Origin: Alcanivorax sp. DG881
GTDB taxonomy: Bacteria > Pseudomonadota > Gammaproteobacteria > Pseudomonadales > Alcanivoracaceae
Direction: 5' to 3'
Assembly: GCF_000155615.1 (NCBI RefSeq)
Contig: NZ_DS989915.1
Coordinates: 210,756-274,755, forward strand
Length of the DNA stretch: 64,000 nt
Shown here piece after piece: positions 44,854 to 55,464 of this stretch (positions are counted from its first letter, which is position 1; every line of letters begins with the position of its first letter). The notes under the pieces are model-generated. The model searched no databases. It was not told where the DNA came from and worked only from the letters and a program-made list of their open reading frames with translations. The position numbers and the translations under genes are program-made.

Positions 44854-45834
44854 TCAAGTGGGTTGTGGTTCATATTCTTTCTGGTGTGCGAGCACGCCAT
44901 AAGCAATGTGCACCAGTTTTCTCATCGCCGCGCCCAGCGCTGACATCTTTCGTTTGCCTGCAGCACACAGCCGTTGATATTGCCGCCGGATGCTGGGGTT
45001 ATGCCGCATCGCCACAACGGCACCCATATACAACTTCTGCCGCAAGGCTGGATCTCCATTTTTCGAGAGCCGCGGTGCGTGCCTGACCGAACTGCCCGAG
45101 GTCCACTCCACCGGCACTAGACCCATGAAGGCGGCCACTTGTCGGCCGCTTTTGAAGCGCCTTGATCGCAGCGTCACCAGTAAATGCACCGACAGCACCT
45201 CGCCGATCCCCGGAATGCTTTCCAGCAAGCGCCTGTCGCGCTTAAGGCCGTCATGGCGATCAATATGATCATCCACTTCCTTGATCAGCCTTTTGGCCTC
45301 CCGTCGCAGCAATGCCAGCACATGCGTAATCGAGTGTTCTGCTTGCGTGTCACGGTTGAACTGCGCCTTTTCTAACCGATTCTGTTCGCGCTGAATGTCC
45401 TTCTGTACCGTCTCCAGACGTTTGGCCAGCTGCTTGAGGGTCCGCACTTCCTCTGGCTCAGGCTGCCAAGGCGTCAGCTCAGGGTTCGCCTGCGCAAAAT
45501 GCACAATCCGTTTGCTGTCTTTCTTGTCACTCTTGCCTTGATCGCCCAGGGAGCGGGCGTAGTAGCTCACGCGGGCAGGGTTCAGCACGTAGACCGTCAC
45601 GCCAGATTGGTGCAGCCAGTACGCCAGGGGTTCGTGATAGATGCCGGTCGCTTCCAGATACACCTGAAGCTCGCCGGGGGACGCGTCGATTTGTTTGAGC
45701 AACCATGACAGCAGCGCGGGATAATGATCGTGGGCATTGGGAAATACCCGGGTTTTTACCTTGCCGGCCTGAGCATCACGCAACCAGCATAGATCGAGCT
45801 TTTTCTTACTGACATCAATACCGATGGTAGCCAT
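44854..45834 (-). CDS. IS110-family transposase (DEDD recombinase)
   Basis: A 326-aa protein. The N-terminal RuvC-like domain starts MATIGIDVSKKKLDLCW (Asp7), with LEATGIYH (Glu near 62) and GKSDKKDSKRI (Asp pair near 104). A coiled-coil linker leads to the Transposase_20 domain with LLESIPGIGEVLSVHLL and the Ser-containing TSGSS..RLSKNGDPALR. It appears intact. The family is guided by a bridge RNA encoded next to the gene. Confidence 0.95.
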   Translation of the reverse strand: MATIGIDVSKKKLDLCWLRDAQAGKVKTRVFPNAHDHYPALLSWLLKQIDASPGELQVYLEATGIYHEPLAYWLHQSGVTVYVLNPARVSYYARSLGDQGKSDKKDSKRIVHFAQANPELTPWQPEPEEVRTLKQLAKRLETVQKDIQREQNRLEKAQFNRDTQAEHSITHVLALLRREAKRLIKEVDDHIDRHDGLKRDRRLLESIPGIGEVLSVHLLVTLRSRRFKSGRQVAAFMGLVPVEWTSGSSVRHAPRLSKNGDPALRQKLYMGAVVAMRHNPSIRRQYQRLCAAGKRKMSALGAAMRKLVHIAYGVLAHQKEYEPQPT

Positions 45835-46149: not shown

Positions 46150-47139
46150 TTAGTTAGGAAAAAAGTTCAGCTTGTAATCGCCTTTCCAGGTTTCCACATT
46201 CATGGCGCCAAAGTTCATTTTTCGGGCCACCAACAGGATCCGCCGTTCAAGCTTGTCGTCACCCAGCTGGCTGGACTTGATCTTCACGTCCAGCACGTCG
46301 CCACTGGGGGCGATGGTCAAAGCCAGAACCACAGTGCCTTGCAGGGCAGGGTTGCTGCGCAGTGCGCGCTGGTACTGGCTGTTGAACTTGCCAGCATAGC
46401 GGTCGAATACGCGGCGTAACTGTTCCTGGGTGCGACGACTCTTGCCATCGCTGCCTTTGCGCGAGGTGCTGGCTGCTTCACCGGCCTGGGCGATCTTGCT
46501 GTCCACCTGCTTGCCGCCACTGCCCACGGTGCCGGCAGATAAGGTGCCGCCGCCACCGCCGCCGCTTGAGGCCCGTGCTACTGCCACGCCCCCGGAACCG
46601 CTGCCGGCACGGGTGCCGATCAGGTCACGCTCTGCCTTGGCGGTGGTGCTGCCACCGGTTCGCAGGTCGCTGCCAGAGTTCACCAATGGGCCGATATCGT
46701 CCAGCCCGGCCAGGGAGTCACCCAGGTCCTCTTCCAGTTTTGCCTGTGCTTTTTCACGGGCCTGCTGGCGCTCCTGAGGTTCCGGTACCGGTTTGGGCTT
46801 GGGCTCGGGTTTCGGCTCAGGCTTGGGCTCCGGTTTGGGATCCTCTTTCTTGGGTTCTTCCTTTTTCTCTTCTGGCTCGGGTTCCGGTTCGGGCTCAGGC
46901 GGTGGTGGTTCTTTTTTCTTTTCCATGACCAGTTGCGCAAGGCGTTCCGGAATCTTCTGCTGTTCACGGCGGTCCGGTTTCTCGATGGTCACCGCGTTCA
47001 CCATGATCATGATCAGCAAAGAGAGAATCAGCAGAACGATAACGATGCCGTAGAGGCGTCGATCTTCCCCCTCCTGTTTATCCCAAGGTAGCGAGCCGTC
47101 AATCAGGATGCGCAGCTTGTTATTGTTTTTCTGCGTCAT
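46150..47139 (-). CDS. TonB-like energy transducer with AgmX-type C-terminal domain
   Basis: A 329-aa bitopic protein. One inner-membrane segment (about 29-48) is followed by a Pro-Glu/Lys-Pro repeat region (about 72-122), a charged coiled stretch, a Gly/Ser-rich linker and a folded C-terminus (about 240-329). The last contains RRVFDRYAGKFNSQYQRAL and GTVVLALTIAPSGDVLDVKI, typical of AgmX/PglI-type domains. The layout matches TonB: membrane anchor, periplasm-spanning rod, terminal domain. It overlaps the ExbD-like gene upstream by 4 bp and is the last gene of the operon. Confidence 0.85.
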   Translation of the reverse strand: MTQKNNNKLRILIDGSLPWDKQEGEDRRLYGIVIVLLILSLLIMIMVNAVTIEKPDRREQQKIPERLAQLVMEKKKEPPPPEPEPEPEPEEKKEEPKKEDPKPEPKPEPKPEPKPKPVPEPQERQQAREKAQAKLEEDLGDSLAGLDDIGPLVNSGSDLRTGGSTTAKAERDLIGTRAGSGSGGVAVARASSGGGGGGTLSAGTVGSGGKQVDSKIAQAGEAASTSRKGSDGKSRRTQEQLRRVFDRYAGKFNSQYQRALRSNPALQGTVVLALTIAPSGDVLDVKIKSSQLGDDKLERRILLVARKMNFGAMNVETWKGDYKLNFFPN

Positions 47140-47636
47140 TCTTCCTCCTCCTCTGCGACTTTCAGCACAGCGAAGGCGACTTGTGTGTATGGGGTTTCCA
47201 TACAGCTACGCATCAACTTCTTGATCACCGAGTAGGGTACCGAGCGGTCGGCAAGAATCATTATTTCCCGGTCTTCGTCCGGACTGATCGCCAGCCCTTG
47301 CGAAGCGCGGAAATTCAATTCTTCCACCAGCGCCGCCACGGTACGCTCTTCCTGATTTCTGACTGTTTCGGTATCGGCGATTTTTTGCCCTTCAACAATG
47401 ATGTCCACGGGGCTTACCTGAATGGTCAGCACCTCGGTGGGCAGCTCCTGGGCAATGGATTCCGGTAACTGGATATCCTGATTGTCCGGCAACTTGGCCG
47501 CATTGTTGTTATTCACCAGCAGAAAGATCAGCAGGATGGTGAAAATGTCCATCAGGGACGTCAGGTTCAGTGTGGCAACGGCCTTGTGCTTGCCGTGGTG
47601 CCGGGCCATACGGCGGGCGCGGGATGACTTCTTCAT
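47136..47636 (-). CDS. ExbD/TolR-family protein, Asp-containing copy
   Basis: A 166-aa protein with one N-terminal membrane segment, LNLTSLMDIFTILLIFLLVN. Asp30 corresponds to the proton-path Asp of ExbD (Asp25) and TolR (Asp23). The periplasmic domain contains EIMILADRSVPYSVIKKLM. It overlaps the neighbours on both sides by 4 bp (ATGA) and should be the proton-conducting ExbD partner. Confidence 0.9.
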   Translation of the reverse strand: MKKSSRARRMARHHGKHKAVATLNLTSLMDIFTILLIFLLVNNNNAAKLPDNQDIQLPESIAQELPTEVLTIQVSPVDIIVEGQKIADTETVRNQEERTVAALVEELNFRASQGLAISPDEDREIMILADRSVPYSVIKKLMRSCMETPYTQVAFAVLKVAEEEEE

Positions 47637-48172
47637 GCATCACCTCCCTTGCCGGCGTTATTGCCACTTTGATCCTTGGGCGCTGAACCGATGCTGATGC
47701 TCGGGAACAACTCTTTCTTGATGGTTTGGCCGTTGACCTCGCTGTTGTACAGACGCACGGCGTCCATGGTCTGGATCATCACCTCGTAGGGGGTGTCATC
47801 CTCACACAGCAAGGTAATGGCGGTTTCCTGGGGAAACTTTTCTTTTACCTGCACAAGGTAATCGTGCAGGCCGGTGCTATTGGGCTTCTCGCCATCGTTT
47901 TTCACAATCTTGAGTACCGCGCTGGTATTGCGGTCGACCACTTCGTAGCGGTTGCCGTAAATCAGCACTTCAAGCACCAGCTTGTCTTTTTCGTCGTCTT
48001 CCGAGGGGGTGCTGCTGTCATTCACCGCGGGCAGGTCGAGTTGCAGGATGGATACCTGCGCGAAGACCGCGTTGATCAGCAGAAAAGGAATCAGCACTAC
48101 CATCAAATTCAGGAAGGCAGTGATGTTCAGTTCCACCTCGGTGTCGTGCGAACGTCGTCTGCGAAAACGCAT
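47633..48172 (-). CDS. ExbD/TolR-family protein lacking the transmembrane Asp
   Basis: A 179-aa ExbD-like protein with membrane segment LNITAFLNLMVVLIPFLLIN. At the position of the proton-path Asp it has Asn22. The periplasmic domain ITLLCEDDTPYEVMIQTMDAVR keeps the family pattern. It probably pairs with the Asp-containing copy in a mixed ExbD dimer. It starts 41 bp after the ExbB-like gene. Confidence 0.87.
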   Translation of the reverse strand: MRFRRRRSHDTEVELNITAFLNLMVVLIPFLLINAVFAQVSILQLDLPAVNDSSTPSEDDEKDKLVLEVLIYGNRYEVVDRNTSAVLKIVKNDGEKPNSTGLHDYLVQVKEKFPQETAITLLCEDDTPYEVMIQTMDAVRLYNSEVNGQTIKKELFPSISIGSAPKDQSGNNAGKGGDA

Positions 48173-48213
48173 ACCAGATCCTTACACCAGGTTAGCGAAA
48201 ACAAGAAATCGGC

Positions 48214-48906
48214 TTATTGGCCGTCGTTCTTGCGCTCTTGCTGGGCAGAAACCTGGCGGAATACGTTAACGAATTTCACCGAGGCCATTTCCATGCTGTC
48301 GACCAGTTTGCCGGTCATGGAATTGATAAAGGCGAAAGCCAACAACATGGGGATCGCAGCGATCAGGCCGAACGCCGTGGTGTTCATGGCGACAGAGATA
48401 GAGGCAGACAGCAGATCGGCTTTTTGGGCCGGGTCAGCACTGGCGACCGCGGTAAAAGCACTGATCAGACCAAGAATGGTACCGAGCAGACCGAGCAGGG
48501 TGGCGATGTTCGCGAAGGTGGCGATATAGGGGGTGCGGGTTTCCAGGCGCGGAATGATTTCCATAAGGCCTTCTTCCATGGCCAGTTCGATATCATCATG
48601 ACGCTTGGCGGATTTGGCGCGTTCCAGGCCGTAACCGATTACCTTGGCCATACCGGTGTTGCTGTTGCTGACCACGTCCAGCGCCTGGCGGAACTGGCCC
48701 TTGGCAATCAGCGGGTAAACGTCTTTCCAGGTCTTCTGGTTTTTTGCCTTGGTGGCCTGGAGGTAGATGATGCGTTCCAGAGACAGGGCCAGGCCCAGTG
48801 CCAACACAATCAGAATGGGGTACATGAAGAACCCGCCATCCTGAATAAATTTGATAGAGGTCTCAATGACACCCAGATTTTGGGCGGCAGCGGCGGTGGT
48901 GGGCAT
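48214..48906 (-). CDS. MotA/TolQ/ExbB-type proton channel protein
   Basis: A 230-aa inner-membrane protein with three hydrophobic segments: FFMYPILIVLALGLALSLER near the N-terminus, then ANIATLLGLLGTILGLISAF and TTAFGLIAAIPMLLAFAFIN after a cytoplasmic loop. The TLLGLLGTILG and NTTAFGLIAAIP motifs carry the conserved Thr residues of ExbB/TolQ channels. AGGAGAAGTTC precedes the ATG. It opens the second half of the cluster, after a terminator at 49013-49034. Confidence 0.92.
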   Translation of the reverse strand: MPTTAAAAQNLGVIETSIKFIQDGGFFMYPILIVLALGLALSLERIIYLQATKAKNQKTWKDVYPLIAKGQFRQALDVVSNSNTGMAKVIGYGLERAKSAKRHDDIELAMEEGLMEIIPRLETRTPYIATFANIATLLGLLGTILGLISAFTAVASADPAQKADLLSASISVAMNTTAFGLIAAIPMLLAFAFINSMTGKLVDSMEMASVKFVNVFRQVSAQQERKNDGQ

Positions 48907-49012
48907 GAACTTCTCCTGCGATGTTTCTGTTTAGCGTTATTGTTGGGCGCAGCGACGTTTCGGCTGGTGTGAACGTGCTGGCGCCTTTCCCCAAAGTGTT
49001 CGTTTTTATCAG

Positions 49013-49034
49013 AAAAAAAGCGTGCACGCACGCT
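49013..49034 (-). terminator. Intrinsic terminator inside the TPR/ExbB cluster
   Basis: On the minus strand AGCGTG pairs with CACGCT (49029-49034/49019-49024), loop CGTG, followed by a run of seven Ts. It separates the TPR half of the cluster from the ExbB-ExbD-TonB half, so the latter may have its own promoter within 48907-49012. I could not identify one. Confidence 0.65.
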
Positions 49035-49055
49035 AATGCTATTTACGGTGTTTGT

Positions 49056-49343
49056 TTATTCCAGAAACAGGCCGTCATTGTCCGGTTCCTGGGTCAGCAG
49101 CTGGTGATACTCGATTTCACGCATCAGCACTTCCTGGTCCAGTGGCTCCAGCACCCGGTTGAGCAACGACGAGGTGGGATCCTTCTTTTCCAGTTTTACT
49201 TCACGGTCTTTCCAGGGCACCACGTTCAGCACCGTGGGTGCCTCCTGGGTCCCGATAACGTTGGTCGACGGTTCGCTCGAGTCATCGGCGGCATGGCTGG
49301 CAGTGGCCAGCAGCAGTGCAGCAAGGGTCAACAGGCTTCGCAT
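49056..49343 (-). CDS. Small secreted hypothetical protein of the TPR/ExbB cluster
   Basis: A 95-aa protein with a cleavable signal peptide (MRSLLTLAALLLATASHA) and an acidic mature part of about 77 residues. I recognise no family. Its ATG overlaps the stop codon of the upstream TPR lipoprotein gene (TGATG), so it is translated with that operon and probably acts in the periplasm with it. Confidence 0.75.
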   Translation of the reverse strand: MRSLLTLAALLLATASHAADDSSEPSTNVIGTQEAPTVLNVVPWKDREVKLEKKDPTSSLLNRVLEPLDQEVLMREIEYHQLLTQEPDNDGLFLE

Positions 49344-50107
49344 CAGTTCATCTCCCCGGGGTTAAGGGTCGAGCCGTTTTCGGCCACCGGTTGGCTGGGC
49401 TGTTCTGGCGCACGGCGCTCCAGATCGACAATCCAGTTGGCTACGTTTTCGTCCGGCAGTTTCTGCAGGTTCTGGTAGGCACGGAAATGATTGAGCGCCA
49501 GGTTCATGTCCTGCAGGTACAGCTCGCCGAGTACGGCCAGGTTGAAATGGGCGCGGGCATACTTGGGGTCAAGCACCAGGGCACGCTCATAATGAATGCG
49601 GGCGTTATCGAATTCGCCTTGCTCGCGCAGGGCCAGGCCCAGCCCATTGTGGGCGTAGGGGTTGGCATCATTGATGGCCAGCGACTGCTCGAAGGCCGCC
49701 TGGGCCTTGTCGTAATCTTCCAGCTCCATCTGTATCAAGCCGATGTTGAGCTGCGGGCCGGACAGTTGCGGATAACGTTCGGCCAGAGACTGGAACATGA
49801 CCAGTGCCTGTTCATTGTTGCCTGCCATGCGGGTTTGCAGGGCACGGGCGTATTCGCCCATGGCCTGTTGCGCGATTTTCTCGACTTTGGGGTCGTGGGG
49901 CACCGGTGGAATATGCACCGCATCGCTGTTGGCAGCGGCGCCGCCACTCTTTTGCTGTTCATATTTGCTGGTGTTGCCTTCGGCGGTACCGTCCAGCCCG
50001 CCGCCCTGATTGATGGCACAGCCAGAGAATAGTAGTGCCAGCAAGAGGAACGCGCTGCGTGTTGCGTGTTGCGTGCCGCGTGCTGCGTTAATAGATAATG
50101 TCGACAT
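49343..50107 (-). CDS. TPR-repeat lipoprotein with repeat-derived N-terminus
   Basis: A 254-aa protein from ATG 50107. Lipobox LLFSGC is at about 26-31, and at least three TPR units follow (ALVMFQSLAERYP, DYDKAQAAFEQSLAIND, EFDNARIHYERALVLDP), as in PilW/PilF-like proteins. Residues about 7-18 before the hydrophobic core are encoded by a GCGTG-type repeat. The start lies 20 bp inside the upstream gene in another frame. An upstream ATG at 50134 or a downstream TTG start is possible. Confidence 0.8.
   Translation of the reverse strand: MSTLSINAARGTQHATRSAFLLLALLFSGCAINQGGGLDGTAEGNTSKYEQQKSGGAAANSDAVHIPPVPHDPKVEKIAQQAMGEYARALQTRMAGNNEQALVMFQSLAERYPQLSGPQLNIGLIQMELEDYDKAQAAFEQSLAINDANPYAHNGLGLALREQGEFDNARIHYERALVLDPKYARAHFNLAVLGELYLQDMNLALNHFRAYQNLQKLPDENVANWIVDLERRAPEQPSQPVAENGSTLNPGEMN
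50051..50089. repeat. GCGTG-type repeat at the junction of two TPR genes
   Basis: Plus-strand GCTGCGTGTTGCGTGTTGCG continues as TGCCGCGTGCTGCGTTA. It begins immediately after the stop codon of the 50088-53036 gene and is read through by the next lipoprotein gene. Confidence 0.65.
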
Positions 50108-53036
50108 AGCTCTCAACCTGTTCAAACTTCGCATAACGGCCGGGAATCAGCTCTGCTAACGCGGTAAAGCTCTTTTTTACCCACTGGTCATAGATGTCAT
50201 CGGTGACCAGGTTGGCATTGGCGATAAGAATATCGATGGCCTGATCCTCATAGGGCAGGGCCTTGTCTTCAAGCAGCATGGTGTACTCTTCAAGCTCCAG
50301 TTCATCCATGCCGTTGGGGCGTTCCGACTTGATCAGGTCCCTGGCCAGCACGCGATACATTTCACCGATTTTGTAATTGGCGGCCGTGGCGTATTCGGCG
50401 ACGCCGATCTGGGCAACGGCCTGATAATCGGCCAGTGCTGTTTTCATCACCGTGGTCTTGGCGGCCAGAGAGGTTTTCAGCGGCTGCTCAAGCTTGATGC
50501 GGTTGAACTCCTGGAAGTTCGGTTCAGCCAGAGTAAAGCTGGCATAGGCGGCCAGCCAGGCGACGCGGTCGTCGGCATTGTTGCCGGCGTCCCGGTAGCT
50601 GGTGACAAGTTGTTTCAACCAGTAGGTTTCCCGCTCGCTGTTGGCGGTTTTGCGGTTCAGTTCCACCAGCCTGAATTGCGCTTCGGAGCGGAAATCATAG
50701 GGCTGTGGCCATTCCTGCAGGTACTGCTCATAGAGCGCGATGGACGCTTGCGGCTTCTCGGCCCGGTCCTGCATTTCTGCGGCGCGCCACATGGCCTGGC
50801 GGGCCAGTTCATCGTTCTCGCCTTTATGGTTGGCAGCGATCAGGGTCAGCTCACCGGCGGCGGCGGTATAGTTGCCTTGCTGTTCGTAGGCCACTGCCAG
50901 TTTGTCCGGGATGGTATCGGTCAGCGGATCGTTCGGGTAACGCTGACGGAAGGCTTCCAGGACCGGAATGGCATCGGCACTGCGCTGCTGCTGGATGAAC
51001 AGGGTGGCGGCGTCAAATTCGGCATTCTTGCGTACGGCGGCTTCCGGTACCGCCTGGCCAACGCGCAGGAAGGTGGCGGCGGCCACATCCAGGTTGCCCT
51101 GATCACGCTGTTGTTCGCCCTGGCGGTAGATGCTGAGCGCCAGTTTTTCGCGGTACTCCGCGCGCTGCTCCGGCGGCACTTCTTCCAGTAGCAAAAGCTT
51201 GTTGTAGGCCAGTTCGGAAACCTTGAAGCGCCCCAGATCGAATTCACCGTTAGCAATGGTGGCCCAGCCGTAGCGGAGCATTTCCGGTGCCGGTGCCGGG
51301 TCGCGGCTGACCAGAATGCCGGCGGTTTTCACCGCGCCTTCTACATCACCCAGTGCCAGCTGATCTTCAGCGGTGTTGTGCAACACATTGGTTGCCTGCG
51401 GGTGTTGCGGGAAGTGCTGCCCAAACTTCTGGGCACTGGCGATTTTCTGTTGGCGCCACAGGGTTGCCTGTTCCGGTTCCAGCTCGCCATCGAGAATTTT
51501 CTGATAGGCAACCAGGCCGGAGAAGGCAGCGTCGCCACCGGTGGTGTGCTCGGGGTAGCCATAGGCGGTGCGCTCGAATTGCGCAATCGCAGCCGGGTAA
51601 TCGTTGGCGGCGAACAGCACATCGGCGTAGCGGTGGTTCACGTCACCCTGATTGGCGCTGACGGGGGGCGTGTCCAGGTATTCCTTGTACCAGCGTGCTG
51701 GCGCCTGGTAGTCCGCTGGCTTGCCGGATTTCTGGGCGAGCACATGGTGGTATTCGGCCAGGTCGAGGATATGCCCCTTGAGCAGATCCACATATTGCTG
51801 GCGGATATCCGGGTGACGGTTCCAGTACTCGCTGTTCACCCCATAGTGGTCGATGAATTTTTCTTTGGCCGGCAATACCAGCGTCGGGAAGCCCCCTTTC
51901 TGGTAAGACTCGATCTGCAGGGTAGAAAACTCCGGGGCCAGGCGGGAATCCGGGTACACCTGAACGAACATGTCGTAGGTTTCCGCCGCATCGCGGAAAC
52001 GTTCCTGGTTCAGGTAGACGTCACCGAGGGTACGGTAAATCGCCGGCTCGTAGTCCCGGTTGCCGTTGCGGGCAAACCAGGCTTTCACTGACTTGGCGCC
52101 GTTCAGGTTGCTGAAACTGAGGCTGACAACCCGTTGGGTATCGACGAACAGTTTGCTTTCCATGCTGGTGTTATCCGCCAGCACGGCCTGGCCATTGAGG
52201 TTGTCCAGCAGGGTAAAGAAGCTGTCCTGGGCGCGTTCGTATTCGCCCAGTTTGTAGTAACTCCAGCCGTGCTTGTACAACGCCTGGTTATAGAATTCAT
52301 TGCGCTCGCCCCGTTCGATGACGTCAGCGTAGGCTTTTTCTGCGTATTCGTAGTCGCCTTCGGAGAACAGCATTTCGCCGCGTCGGAACTGGGATTCCAG
52401 TGCCCACTCGCTGTTGGGGTATTGCTCTACCAGAGAATCCAGGCTGCTGCGGGCCTTGTCCAAATCCCCATCCATGGCGTAGGCCTTGGAGAGCAGATAG
52501 TAGGCTTCGGCACGTTCGTTGGCATCGTTGGTGCTGTTGAGCAGCTCCTGATACAGCTGGATCGCCGTGCTGTAGTCCACATCCTCGTCGGCGAGCGTGG
52601 GGGACATGGTGCCTGCCAGGTCCAGCAGGGCCAGTTTCCGCTCGGTGTCGTCGGTGGTATTCACCTGGGACATGGTGTTGTCGTAGACGAGCTGGTCGAC
52701 TTTTTGCTCCAGCTGTTCGTCTTCCTGCTGGGCAATCTGCATGTCCTGCTCGGTGGCAGATGCCAACGCCAGATCGGCCATGCGCCGCAGGGTTTTGGCC
52801 CGGCGTTGCGGATCGTCGAACAGTTCAGCCGCCTGACGGTAGCTGTTCAGGGCATCCTGGGTGGACGCGCTTTCCAGTTGCTGCTCTTCAATGACAATGT
52901 CTGTGCTTTCCAGGTCCGCCAGGGTGGTTCCCCCGAAACGGGCCTGTTGCTCCAGGGTGCCACTTGGCGGTGCGGATGCGCAGCCCCCCAAGGCCACCAT
53001 CGCTGCAGCCAGACTGTGCAGGCGAAATCGTTTCAC
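50088..53036 (-). CDS. Large TPR-repeat lipoprotein
   Basis: A 982-aa protein with lipoprotein signal and lipobox (VALGGC, about 14-19). The mature chain is almost wholly helical repeats of TPR/Sel1 type (for example AEAYYLLSKAYAMDGDLDKA, EYERAQDSFFTLLDNL, YRTLGDVYLNQERFRDAAET). No catalytic motif is visible. Its size and outer-membrane lipid anchor suggest a periplasmic scaffold. It overlaps the upstream TPR gene by 4 bp. Confidence 0.85.
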   Translation of the reverse strand: MKRFRLHSLAAAMVALGGCASAPPSGTLEQQARFGGTTLADLESTDIVIEEQQLESASTQDALNSYRQAAELFDDPQRRAKTLRRMADLALASATEQDMQIAQQEDEQLEQKVDQLVYDNTMSQVNTTDDTERKLALLDLAGTMSPTLADEDVDYSTAIQLYQELLNSTNDANERAEAYYLLSKAYAMDGDLDKARSSLDSLVEQYPNSEWALESQFRRGEMLFSEGDYEYAEKAYADVIERGERNEFYNQALYKHGWSYYKLGEYERAQDSFFTLLDNLNGQAVLADNTSMESKLFVDTQRVVSLSFSNLNGAKSVKAWFARNGNRDYEPAIYRTLGDVYLNQERFRDAAETYDMFVQVYPDSRLAPEFSTLQIESYQKGGFPTLVLPAKEKFIDHYGVNSEYWNRHPDIRQQYVDLLKGHILDLAEYHHVLAQKSGKPADYQAPARWYKEYLDTPPVSANQGDVNHRYADVLFAANDYPAAIAQFERTAYGYPEHTTGGDAAFSGLVAYQKILDGELEPEQATLWRQQKIASAQKFGQHFPQHPQATNVLHNTAEDQLALGDVEGAVKTAGILVSRDPAPAPEMLRYGWATIANGEFDLGRFKVSELAYNKLLLLEEVPPEQRAEYREKLALSIYRQGEQQRDQGNLDVAAATFLRVGQAVPEAAVRKNAEFDAATLFIQQQRSADAIPVLEAFRQRYPNDPLTDTIPDKLAVAYEQQGNYTAAAGELTLIAANHKGENDELARQAMWRAAEMQDRAEKPQASIALYEQYLQEWPQPYDFRSEAQFRLVELNRKTANSERETYWLKQLVTSYRDAGNNADDRVAWLAAYASFTLAEPNFQEFNRIKLEQPLKTSLAAKTTVMKTALADYQAVAQIGVAEYATAANYKIGEMYRVLARDLIKSERPNGMDELELEEYTMLLEDKALPYEDQAIDILIANANLVTDDIYDQWVKKSFTALAELIPGRYAKFEQVESYVDIIY

Positions 53037-54949
53037 GATCCTTTCCTCTGGTTTTTCTCACCGGAGACAGACGAGTCCTGCAGGCGGGCAATGGCCAGAT
53101 GTGCCTCGGCCAACTGGTCAGCCAGCTTTTGCTGGTTGGCGTGGAGCAGGGCGAGGGCGTCGGCCTGCATGTTTTGCTCCAGGGCCAGCAAGGTGTCTTC
53201 TGTCAGGTGTTTTATTTGTTTTATTTTCTGGTCTTGTGCGGCGAGGCGTTGGCCTACGTCGTCACGGGTACGCAGGGTGGCGTCCCGGATCTGTTGGCTT
53301 ATCGCCGCAATACGTTGTGCCAGTATCTGGCTTTCTTCGCGTAAGTGGGTTGCAGCTTGCACTTGTTGTTCGCGTTGTTCCACCGACTGGTGGGCAATAT
53401 CCCAAAGTAGCAGGCCGCGAACCCGGCGCAGGCGAATGGCGTTGTTGTGGTCGGAACCGGGGATACGGCCGAATTGGTGGGCGAGGGCGTCGACTTTCTT
53501 CCACATGATGGCCTGTTCAGCATTGGCTACATCGGCAGGCTTTTCCAGGTCCACATAGTTGGGGATACGGCTGGCCAGCTGGTCGCTGGCCTGGCTGAGC
53601 GTCTCCTGGCGGCTCATCAAGCCGGTAACCTGCCCGCGAACATGGGGCAGGTTTCGGCTCAGGGTCTCACGCTGTTGCTGGTAGCTTTGCTGCAAGGCCG
53701 GCAGCGATTCCTGCCAGTGTTCAACCATGGTCTTGATCTGCTGGATTTGCCGGTAGTGCTCAAAACGCTGGGCAAAATGGTTGCTGGAAAACAGCTTGTA
53801 TAAATACGACAGCTCGCCGCCTTTTGCCATGTCGTTGGTGTTGGCCGGCAGCAGGCCGGCCGCGTTTTCGTCCTCCGGCAGCAAGGCTTCGGACCAGCCG
53901 GGTTTGGCGATGTTATCGATGGCGCGCTGAATGTCCTTAAGGGCCTCGCGGTATTGCGTGGCAGCATACTGATAGCCCGACAGGGCCTGGGGCAGGCCGC
54001 CGAGCTCTTCGTAGGCACGGGGGGCCAGCATCAACGCTTCCTGCACGGAGGGATGGCTGCTGTTGCGACGTACCGCTTCCAGCCACAGGGGCAGGGCGCG
54101 TTTCACGTCGCCGGCGCGGTAGTTCGCCAGGCCGAGTGCAAGCAGGGCATCTTCGGAGAAAGGCCCGTCGCTACGTACCTGGCGCAGATCGGCGCGGGCA
54201 TTTTCCAGGTTGCCGTCTTTCAATTCTGTCAGGCCCGACGCCAGGGCGGCCCGGTCACGCAGAGCCAGCGCCTGATCGCTGCTGCCACCTGCAGACAGCA
54301 AGGATTTAAGCAGTTCAAGGCCCTGAGCCTGATGGCCGGCCCGAATCAGCGCCACGCCCATGTTGTAGCTGGCGTAACGGCCTTCATCGGTATTCAGGGG
54401 CACGGAATGGAGGTAGTCCAGGGCACCGGTAAAGTCCCCCTCGGCCATGAAGATATTGGCCAGCATCAGGCGACGGCGAGCTTCGTCAACCGGCTCCAGC
54501 CCTTTCATGTTTTCGCCATCGAGAATCATGGCCGCGTCGGTGTAGTTGCCTTCGCGGTAATGCAAGGCGGCCTTGTGCAGCCAGGTCTGGGCGCGGGTGC
54601 GGCTGAGGATATCCTTGGCCAGCAGCCGGTTGAAGATGGTTTCGGCTTTGCCCGGCAGGCCGTAGGTGACGTAGAGATCCCCAAGGACCAGTTCGGCGTA
54701 GTCGGTATCTTCACTGAAAAGTTGCTGCTGTTGGTTGACCAGCAGAAGGTTGATGGCATCGAAGTTGGCTTCGCGATAGTAGTCATACATGACTTCACCG
54801 AATGCCAGATAACGGTGCTCTTCCTCGCCGAGAACCTGCGGGCCGGTGTCTACGTCATCAAAAAATTCGACTTTTGCTGCCAGGGCGGGCGAGAGATTAA
54901 TCGCAAGCAGTGAACACAACAGCCACCGTTTCATCCGGGGTCGTGTCAT
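53033..54949 (-). CDS. Periplasmic TPR-repeat protein
   Basis: A 638-aa protein from ATG 54949, which overlaps the previous stop (ATGA). An N-terminal signal (KRWLLCSLLAINLSPALA) precedes repeats such as DYAELVLGDLYVTYGLPGKA and YTDAAMILDGENM. From about residue 390 on there is a long Gln-rich coiled coil. No enzyme motif was seen. A start at 54961 would add four residues. Confidence 0.83.
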   Translation of the reverse strand: MTRPRMKRWLLCSLLAINLSPALAAKVEFFDDVDTGPQVLGEEEHRYLAFGEVMYDYYREANFDAINLLLVNQQQQLFSEDTDYAELVLGDLYVTYGLPGKAETIFNRLLAKDILSRTRAQTWLHKAALHYREGNYTDAAMILDGENMKGLEPVDEARRRLMLANIFMAEGDFTGALDYLHSVPLNTDEGRYASYNMGVALIRAGHQAQGLELLKSLLSAGGSSDQALALRDRAALASGLTELKDGNLENARADLRQVRSDGPFSEDALLALGLANYRAGDVKRALPLWLEAVRRNSSHPSVQEALMLAPRAYEELGGLPQALSGYQYAATQYREALKDIQRAIDNIAKPGWSEALLPEDENAAGLLPANTNDMAKGGELSYLYKLFSSNHFAQRFEHYRQIQQIKTMVEHWQESLPALQQSYQQQRETLSRNLPHVRGQVTGLMSRQETLSQASDQLASRIPNYVDLEKPADVANAEQAIMWKKVDALAHQFGRIPGSDHNNAIRLRRVRGLLLWDIAHQSVEQREQQVQAATHLREESQILAQRIAAISQQIRDATLRTRDDVGQRLAAQDQKIKQIKHLTEDTLLALEQNMQADALALLHANQQKLADQLAEAHLAIARLQDSSVSGEKNQRKGS

Positions 54950-55464
54950 TGCTGATTCCACTCACGGAATTCGAATTTGTGCTGTTGGCTATTCAGGTCA
55001 TCGACCACCTGCATTTCCACCATTTTGCGGCCGGGGCCCTTGGTAAAGTTGTAGCTGGTGGTTTTCTGGTAGTCCTTGCCGAGGGGATCGTAGCCGGTGA
55101 TGGTGGCTTCCATGACATGGCGACCACTGGTCAGGTTGCCGGTATACAAGCGCTGAATGCCGCCCTTGGTGAGCGCTTCGAATTCCTGGTCGGAATAAAA
55201 GTGGTAACCAACATGGTCACCGTCGATGGTCAGGTTGATGTCCACCAGGCGAATCGGCGTGCCCACGTCTACAGAGACAAAGATGCTGGTCTGCGGGCTG
55301 GCGTAGAGTAATTCCTGCTCCAGCAGGGTGAGGTCCCGATTCAGGTTGAGGGCTTCGCTCTTGAGTTGGCGAATCTGCTCGGACAGGCCATCGTCGTCAG
55401 CCGCACCGGCAATGGAACACAGGCTCACTAACACGGCGCCGCAAAAGGGCAAAAATGCTTTCAT
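54946..55464 (-). CDS. Small periplasmic coiled-coil protein, first gene of the TPR/ExbB cluster
   Basis: A 172-aa precursor with signal peptide (about 1-21, ending SIAGA), a heptad-like segment (LSEQIRQLKSEALNLNRDL, about 27-50) and a beta-rich domain (SIFVSVDVGTPIRLVDINLT, then GRHVMEATITGYDP). I recognise no named family. It has a convincing promoter 60 bp upstream and leads the operon by ATGA coupling. Confidence 0.8.
   Translation of the reverse strand: MKAFLPFCGAVLVSLCSIAGAADDDGLSEQIRQLKSEALNLNRDLTLLEQELLYASPQTSIFVSVDVGTPIRLVDINLTIDGDHVGYHFYSDQEFEALTKGGIQRLYTGNLTSGRHVMEATITGYDPLGKDYQKTTSYNFTKGPGRKMVEMQVVDDLNSQQHKFEFREWNQQ

What the first reader, a model, noticed from the sequence alone, without database searches (positions are those of the whole stretch)
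46150..55464. Nine-gene TPR / ExbB-ExbD-ExbD / TonB-like cluster: candidate uncharacterised trans-envelope energised machine
Seen: on one strand, in order, a small coiled-coil secreted protein, a periplasmic TPR protein, a 982-aa TPR lipoprotein, a smaller TPR lipoprotein, a 95-aa secreted protein, an ExbB/MotA-type channel, two ExbD-like proteins and a TonB-like protein with an AgmX-type C-terminus. Most joints are 1-4 bp overlaps (one is 20 bp). Known: ExbB/ExbD/TonB and TolQRA use proton flow to move periplasmic rods, and Myxococcus Agl-Glt gliding uses an ExbB/ExbD-type motor with TPR envelope proteins. Inference: this is a proton-driven complex spanning inner membrane, periplasm and two outer-membrane-anchored TPR scaffolds, not ordinary TonB iron uptake, because no TonB-dependent receptor or siderophore gene is nearby.
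Basis: partly seen in the sequence, partly recalled or inferred. Interest (0 to 1): 0.8.

Follow-up and report, generated by a model that had tools for sequence, protein, structure and literature searches.

The report
Proton-driven envelope machine with client module
This Alcanivorax gene cluster encodes a proton-powered machine that spans both cell membranes and is related to the Myxococcus gliding motor, and comparison of many genomes links it to a separate set of outer-membrane and cytochrome-like surface proteins that it probably acts on.

Summary
The nine genes are real and form one conserved unit. They match the gammaproteobacterial Agl/Glt "core complex" of Luciano et al. 2011 (PMC3169522: GltC, D, E, G, AglR, Q, S; function unknown), plus two small exported proteins. 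So the kind is known, its function is not.

New here:
(1) The gene-1 family is in 84 of 369 class genomes, all 84 GltD-positive; 0 of 281 GltD-negative genomes have it.
(2) An OM/redox module (two OM barrels, TlpA, DUF4266, DUF3570, ApbE, CxxCH lipoproteins, a Tat-type protein) tracks the machine: its marker k2 is in 52 of 369 genomes, 51 GltD-positive, 36 of 52 within 25 kb.
(3) This genome carries the module 1.2 Mb away with a second g1-GltC pair.
(4) 17 clusters lack motor genes; their 17 genomes have motor genes elsewhere, one only up to a contig end.
(5) The first ExbD has Asn for the channel Asp in 89 of 91 loci; the second keeps Asp in 91 of 91.

Most likely: one shared proton motor acting on exchangeable OM/surface clients, as AglRQS serves Glt and Nfs. 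The client's function is unresolved.

The parts
54946..55464 (-). Gene 1: exported 172-aa protein, N-terminal helix (24-52) then a beta-sandwich; new family, obligate companion of GltD
   Evidence: no Pfam match; AlphaFold2 pLDDT 77; transthyretin/Ig-like, Z up to 8.6, unspecific; 84 of 84 carrier genomes are GltD-positive
53033..54961 (-). GltC-type periplasmic TPR protein with long coiled-coil C-half
   Evidence: searches (TPR; AlphaFold2 pLDDT 72), position next to GltD; fused to GltD in 7 loci. Identity as GltC rests on position, size and TPRs
50088..53036 (-). GltD-type 982-aa TPR lipoprotein (lipobox LGGC by eye)
   Evidence: 88 of 369 class genomes
49343..50134 (-). GltE-type TPR lipoprotein (lipobox FSGC by eye); internal ATG at 50107 gives the 20-bp overlap
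   Evidence: (NF033758 GltE 39.1 bits, cut-off 225)
49056..49343 (-). Gene 5: exported 95-aa protein with conserved core near G-N-x-E-x-P...V-P-W-K; positional counterpart of M. xanthus GltF (89 aa)
   Evidence: GltF position and size from PMC3169522
49019..49034 (-). Terminator-like hairpin with T-run in the 149-bp gap between gene 5 and the motor genes
   Evidence: consensus scan: 15 terminator-like sites found, mean 12.7 in shuffles, so not evidence by itself
48214..48906 (-). AglR-type ExbB/TolQ-family channel subunit
   Evidence: 361 bits to the AglR profile; the other four family members of this genome 47-122 bits
47633..48172 (-). First ExbD-like subunit; transmembrane Asp replaced by Asn
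   Evidence: Asn in 89 of 91 loci, Asp in 1, Ser in 1
47136..47636 (-). Second ExbD-like subunit; transmembrane Asp kept
   Evidence: Asp in 91 of 91 loci
46150..47139 (-). GltG-type TonB-like protein: one TM helix, Pro/Glu-rich linker, AgmX/PglI C-terminal domain
   Evidence: (NF033768 58.7 bits over cut-off 40; NF033760 GltG 52.5 of 650)

Best explanation
The cluster is a standalone Agl/Glt core complex. Proton flow through AglR plus an asymmetric ExbD pair (one subunit with, one without the channel Asp) drives the TonB-like GltG across the periplasm. GltG contacts the GltE/gene-5/GltD layer (gene 5 as the GltF-like, TonB-box-like target), and the g1-GltC pair links that layer to OM barrels. 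Genes 1-C(-D-E-5) act as an adaptor that can be duplicated; R-Q-S-G is the shared motor. One client of the motor is an OM redox module: two OM barrels (one over cut-off for family OMP_myx_plus, the other weak; candidate GltA/GltB counterparts), CxxCH lipoproteins, TlpA, DUF4266, DUF3570, ApbE and a Tat-type exported protein. In this strain that client lies 1.2 Mb away with its own g1-GltC pair. Shown: domains, co-occurrence, linkage in other genomes, motor-less duplicates. Inferred: force direction, motor sharing, physical contact. Step estimates: core-complex identity 0.95, client relation 0.8, motor sharing 0.65, redox function of the client 0.4.
For: Nine genes in 13 of 13 named Alcanivorax loci. 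All nine found in 65 of 113 loci, exact order in 64. AgmX/PglI domain over cut-off. g1 in 84 of 369 genomes, all GltD-positive, 0 of 281 GltD-negative. Module marker k2: 51 of 52 carriers GltD-positive, Fisher p 2.8e-37, 36 of 52 within 25 kb. TIGR04565 barrel over cut-off in 26 of 40 GltD-positive and 0 of 40 GltD-negative genomes. Own genome: module, ApbE, second g1 and second GltC in one region; that second GltC groups with module-linked copies of other families (26-tip clade, support 0.96), not with the window's GltC. 17 motor-less clusters lie in genomes with motor genes elsewhere. GltC and GltD in one ORF in 7 loci. G662, same genus, lacks g1, k2 and GltD together. Published parallels: AglRQS powers both Glt and Nfs (PMC3858216); GltA/GltB barrels bind GltC (PMC4488436).
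Against: 37 of 88 GltD-positive genomes lack k2, so the redox module cannot be the only client. In Alcanivorax the link is co-presence, not adjacency, and G651 of the genus has g1 and two GltD but no k2. In one two-copy genome (G239) the module sits with the motor-bearing copy and not with the motor-less one. The first ExbD lacks the Asp that M. xanthus AglQ needs. GltG and GltE score far below the NCBI equivalog cut-offs. The Alcanivorax DUF3570 lacks the [ST]GA[ST] flavinylation motif. Fisher p ignores shared ancestry. One genome (G034) has module genes and no GltD. No physical interaction was tested.
Confidence: 0.6

Rival explanations
1. Protein secretion/assembly machine: the motor and TPR scaffold export or fold large surface proteins (CxxCH/LamG lipoproteins, DUF11-type giants) across the OM, like PorLM with PorW in type IX secretion.
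For: Several module and downstream neighbours are large exported proteins; GltD gives a weak PorW/SprE match (51.6 bits, cut-off 250).
Against: No large OM translocon barrel was among the recurrent flanking families that I annotated; flank genes that did not recur were not searched. The PorW match may be TPR only.
Confidence: 0.2
2. Surface-polymer transport or envelope shaping as in Nfs; the redox module merely shares ecology and gene neighbourhood.
For: Nfs moves the Exo polymer with the same motor (PMC3858216); 37 of 88 GltD-positive genomes lack k2.
Against: 51 of 52 k2 carriers have GltD, 36 of 52 within 25 kb, and the module of this genome carries its own g1-GltC.
Confidence: 0.12
3. Ordinary TonB-type energiser for receptors (iron, metal).
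For: ExbB/ExbD/TonB-like parts; [quoted passage not shown]
Against: Separate Tol and Exb-TonB-type sets exist in the genome; AgmX-type C-terminus; constant TPR and g1 companions.
Confidence: 0.05
4. Gliding motility machine in Alcanivorax.
For: Resemblance to Agl-Glt; an OMP_myx_plus barrel in the genome.
Against: Luciano et al. judge it unlikely that the core alone drives motility. I did not look for the cytoplasmic gliding proteins.
Confidence: 0.03

Closest known systems
Agl/Glt Group B core complex (Luciano et al. 2011, PMC3169522)
   Same: GltC, D, E, G plus AglR, Q, S clustered in one region in gammaproteobacteria
   Different: The paper reports one additional gene; here two small companions (g1, g5) were found. 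A client module, motor-less copies and the Asn-bearing first ExbD were not in the parts read (supplements not available)
Myxococcus Agl-Glt gliding machine and Agl-Nfs spore-coat machine
   Same: One motor used by two paralogous envelope complexes; GltB-GltA barrels encoded beside GltC
   Different: No FHA domain found in the window's GltG; AglQ and AglS are both described as having the Asp (PMC9389320); the client here looks redox-like
DUF3570/DUF4266/ApbE/thioredoxin flavinylation clusters (Meheust et al. 2021, PMC8238504)
   Same: DUF3570, DUF4266, thioredoxin-like and ApbE genes together
   Different: Here joined to OM barrels, CxxCH lipoproteins and the Glt machine; 31 of 46 distinct DUF3570 sequences lack the flavinylation motif. 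ExbB, TPR and gliding do not occur in that paper's main text (its supplement was not seen)
Tol-Pal and TonB-ExbB-ExbD
   Same: ExbB/ExbD-type channel with a TonB-like arm
   Different: TPR lipoproteins, two ExbDs, AgmX-type end; separate Tol/Exb sets present

Membership tests
Agl/Glt core complex (Group B) | GltC, GltD, GltE, GltG, AglR and two ExbD-like genes clustered in one region | tested here: met
   GltC and GltD assigned by position, size and TPRs, not by comparison with M. xanthus sequences
Agl/Glt core complex (Group B) | GltG with AgmX/PglI-type TonB-like C-terminus | tested here: met
   NF033768 58.7 bits over cut-off 40
Agl/Glt core complex (Group B) | Monophyly with the core clade of the 2011 trees | not tested
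Myxococcus gliding machinery | GltE and GltG over NCBI equivalog cut-offs | tested here: not met
   GltE 39.1 of 225, GltG 52.5 of 650 bits; these equivalog models are named for the gliding proteins proper
Myxococcus gliding machinery | Protonatable Asp in both ExbD-like subunits | tested here: not met
   First ExbD Asn in 89 of 91, second Asp in 91 of 91 loci; the Myxococcus state is from PMC9389320
Myxococcus gliding machinery | GltA/GltB-type OM barrels | tested here: inconclusive
   Own module barrel k4 is TIGR04565 OMP_myx_plus (178.7 bits), 1.2 Mb from the window; that GltA/GltB belong to this family is recalled, not tested
Myxococcus gliding machinery | GltG with N-terminal FHA domain | tested here: not met
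   No Pfam hit in the window's GltG
Myxococcus gliding machinery | Drives gliding | not testable with these tools
   Needs a phenotype assay
Ordinary TonB-ExbB-ExbD or Tol-Pal | Channel subunit over the TolQ or ExbB cut-off, with one ExbD/TolR | tested here: not met
   TolQ 67.3 of 221, ExbB 35.1 of 206.2 bits, two ExbDs; the genome's own TolQ scores 286.7

The most novel reading that the evidence does not exclude
A widespread, previously unlinked envelope system: one shared proton motor (AglR, an Asp/Asn ExbD pair, GltG) mechanically drives exchangeable OM clients in gammaproteobacteria, one of which is a cell-surface electron-transfer assembly of barrels, CxxCH lipoproteins, TlpA, DUF4266 and DUF3570; that is, a mechanically actuated redox apparatus at the cell surface.
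Probability: 0.3. Interest if true: 0.9.

Novelty: new variant of a known kind. Interest (0 to 1): 0.7.

Why it matters
[quoted passage not shown] A client module with a strongly nested distribution, in this strain with its own adaptor pair and no motor genes beside it, turns that open question into a concrete set of knockouts and pull-downs in a marine oil-degrading genus. It also suggests that motor sharing, shown in Myxococcus for Glt and Nfs, is more widespread, and it gives a natural Asp/Asn ExbD pair for testing how 5:2 motors work.

Tried and rejected
Fold search of gene 1: only common beta-sandwich matches, no Foldseek hit at E 0.001 or better; not used for function. PDB sequence search for gene 1 and GltG: nothing of use (TonB at E 0.38 for GltG); for the Tat-type protein: nothing of use. 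The GltC model was not fold-searched. Four of the 450-aa GltG variants were scanned with NCBIfam only, not Pfam: just the C-terminal region is informative. Phylum-wide GltD search: 10 of 299 genomes, all of the same class or closer, so no outgroup for a tree with Myxococcus. A DUF3570 survey (95 of 369 genomes) was too broad as a marker, since many strong hits lie in GltD-negative genomes; k2 was used instead. The GltD tree has weak deep nodes, so how often the motor was lost was not counted. Literature: searches; no listed title or abstract start reports the link between this module and the Glt machine; only open-access papers are held. Papers: passages seen in PMC3169522 (also outline, section 6 and supplement list), PMC8238504, PMC3858216, PMC9389320, PMC5349195, PMC9120999, PMC4488436; no whole paper was read.

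Rows dropped before counts: k2 hits of 71 bits or less. Of 113 GltD places, 100 outside the own genome were fetched as regions (from 80 genomes); the own place and 12 others, several of them fragments, were not. Of 21 clusters without R, Q and S, four that end at a contig end within 215 bp (L080, L087, L119, L143) were left out of the 17.
Full report
Observation. The window lies in an Alcanivorax genome: the best named relative, Alcanivorax sp. NORP25, matches the 982-aa protein at 98%. The nine minus-strand ORFs are present as described. Pfam and NCBIfam support TPR repeats, MotA_ExbB, two ExbDs and an AgmX/PglI-type C-terminus over its cut-off; genes 1 and 5 match nothing. The joints are tight except for gaps of 149 bp before the ExbB gene and 41 bp after it.

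What it is. Luciano et al. 2011 (PMC3169522: outline, passages, section 6 and supplement list) described a core of seven genes (gltC, gltD, gltE, gltG, aglR, aglQ, aglS) clustered in gammaproteobacteria, function unknown, with one additional gene. The window matches that in content and sizes; assignment of GltC and GltD rests on order, size and TPRs, because M. xanthus sequences were not at hand. Two small exported proteins complete the unit. Gene 1 is a helix plus beta-sandwich. Gene 5 (95 aa) sits after gltE, before the motor genes, much as the 89-aa secreted GltF of M. xanthus sits between gltE and gltG, and has a conserved G-N-x-E-x-P...VPWK core. A review likens GltF to a TonB box (PMC9389320, passages); that gene 5 plays this role is inference.

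Conservation. All nine genes are in 13 of 13 named Alcanivorax loci. A GltD profile finds 88 of 369 genomes of the class, 113 places. I took 100 regions around these hits and annotated them with profiles grown from the Alcanivorax genes. All nine genes were found in 52 of 100, and in 65 of 113 with the 13 Alcanivorax loci; in 64 the order is exactly 1-C-D-E-5-R-Q-S-G. The others lack one or more genes by this annotation; contig ends, the motor-less copies and the fusions below account for many of them, and I did not resolve each case. In 7 loci GltC and GltD are one continuous ORF. Gene 1 occurs in 84 genomes, every one GltD-positive; 4 GltD-positive genomes lack it; none of 281 GltD-negative genomes has it.

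Client module. Upstream of the machine in many non-Alcanivorax loci lie recurring genes: a beta-propeller/HZS_alpha protein with CxxCH motifs (k2), an SH3-plus-barrel OM protein (k3), an OM barrel (k4), a TlpA-like thioredoxin (k0), DUF4266, DUF3570 (k1), ApbE (k5), a LamG/CxxCH protein (k11), a DUF1585/DUF1588-like protein (below cut-offs) and a protein with a twin-arginine-like start and no Pfam match (k9; Tat and lipoprotein signals judged by eye). Of 100 loci, 51 carry one or more and 34 three or more of ten module families within the fetched flanks. The k2 profile separates cleanly (best match 170 bits or more against 71 or less): 52 of 369 genomes have it, 51 of them GltD-positive, Fisher p 2.8e-37, with k2 within 25 kb of gltD in 36 of 52. 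The reverse does not hold: 37 of 88 GltD-positive genomes lack k2, so the machine has other uses. The p value treats genomes as independent, which they are not; linkage is the stronger argument.

Barrels. k4 belongs to NCBIfam TIGR04565 OMP_myx_plus (178.7 bits, cut-off 60), and k3 is a weak match of the same family (36.4 bits). Over cut-off, the family occurs in 26 of 40 GltD-positive genomes, 0 of 40 GltD-negative ones and 0 of 14 controls; below cut-off, 9 of the 40 GltD-negative genomes have weak matches of 40 bits or less. In M. xanthus the paralogous barrels GltB and GltA are co-transcribed with GltC and bind it (PMC4488436, passages). The order k3-k4...g1-GltC in other genomes is therefore suggestive of a gltBAC equivalent; homology to GltA/GltB was not tested.

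In this strain. The module lies at contig C2 1500803-1513335, 1.2 Mb from the window: DUF3570, DUF4266, TlpA, k4, k3 and k2 on one strand, and the DUF1588-like protein, k11, k9 and ApbE on the other. A second GltC (1514650-1516572) and a second g1 (1516582-1517079) follow, with no gltD, gltE or motor genes found in the stretch read. The second GltC falls in a 26-tip clade (support 0.96) of mostly module-linked copies from other families, not with the window's GltC; the g1 tree has low support at the matching depth. In the genus, 16 of 17 genomes have two or more g1 copies and 15 of 17 have k2. G662 lacks g1, k2 and GltD together; G651 has g1 and two GltD but no k2; G651, G653 and G657, the three GltD-positive congeners checked, each have a second GltD.

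Motor-less copies. Seventeen clusters with enough downstream DNA lack R, Q and S. Fifteen are second copies in genomes with a motor-bearing cluster (for G239 that cluster is cut at a contig end within aglR), and in two genomes (G056, G193) an isolated R-Q-S-G set lies on another contig. In 10 of these 15 two-copy genomes the motor-less copy carries two or more module genes while the motor-bearing copy has at most one; in G239 it is the other way round; in the remaining four neither copy has more than one. The break falls at or before the gene 5 / aglR joint, where the window has its largest gap and a terminator-like hairpin (such hairpins are not above chance in that scan). Nine genomes were tested with the AglR profile: all 7 with GltD have a match of 338 bits or more, and the 2 without GltD reach at most 124.

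Motor detail. The first ExbD has Asn at the position of the channel Asp in 89 of 91 loci, the second has Asp in 91 of 91. In M. xanthus both AglQ and AglS are described as having it (PMC9389320), and AglQ D28N is reported to abolish proton conductance, paralyse motility and block sporulation (PMC3858216). This suggests an asymmetric pair with one proton site; it is not shown.

Mechanism (inferred). Proton flow drives GltG across the periplasm onto GltE/gene 5/GltD, and a g1-GltC adaptor passes force to OM barrels that carry the surface client. The closest published behaviour is AglRQS leaving Glt to move Nfs (PMC3858216). The client's chemistry is open: CxxCH motifs, TlpA, DUF4266 and ApbE point to redox, but the Alcanivorax DUF3570 lacks the flavinylation motif.

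Other TonB systems. The genome has a TolQ-TolR-TolA-TolB set and a second TolQ/ExbB-TolR/ExbD-TonB set, both over the TolQ and TolR cut-offs, and two further ExbB-like genes, so the window's motor is not the strain's only energiser.

Verdict. A known kind (Agl/Glt core complex), with new obligate parts, a newly recognised client module, and a pattern of motor-less copies that makes its function testable.

Noticed in passing
window 44854-45834 (-): IS110-like transposase ORF (named from recall of its sequence, not searched) directly downstream of the cluster.
   Followed up: no
L083, L095, L096, L102, L104, L188 (k24); L090, L097, L106, L108 (k31): Large exported proteins (mostly about 1100-1300 aa; one representative gives a sub-cut-off DUF11 match) next after gltG in loci with a longer GltG: a possible second class of client.
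   Followed up: partly
flanks of L140, L141 and L074: Proteins with 21-45 CxxCH motifs near two motor-less clusters and one complete cluster.
   Followed up: no
L178 (G034): k2 matched only in pieces, with k11 and k9 beside it, and no GltD detected in that genome.
   Followed up: partly
DUF3570 proteins of the fetched loci, L150:9803-10930 included: 31 of 46 distinct DUF3570 sequences lack the published [ST]GA[ST] flavinylation motif; many have S/T-S/A-A-S/T there, although ApbE is often near.
   Followed up: partly
L058, L063, L072, L098, L099, L101, L103: GltC and GltD encoded as one continuous ORF of 1387-1535 aa.
   Followed up: yes
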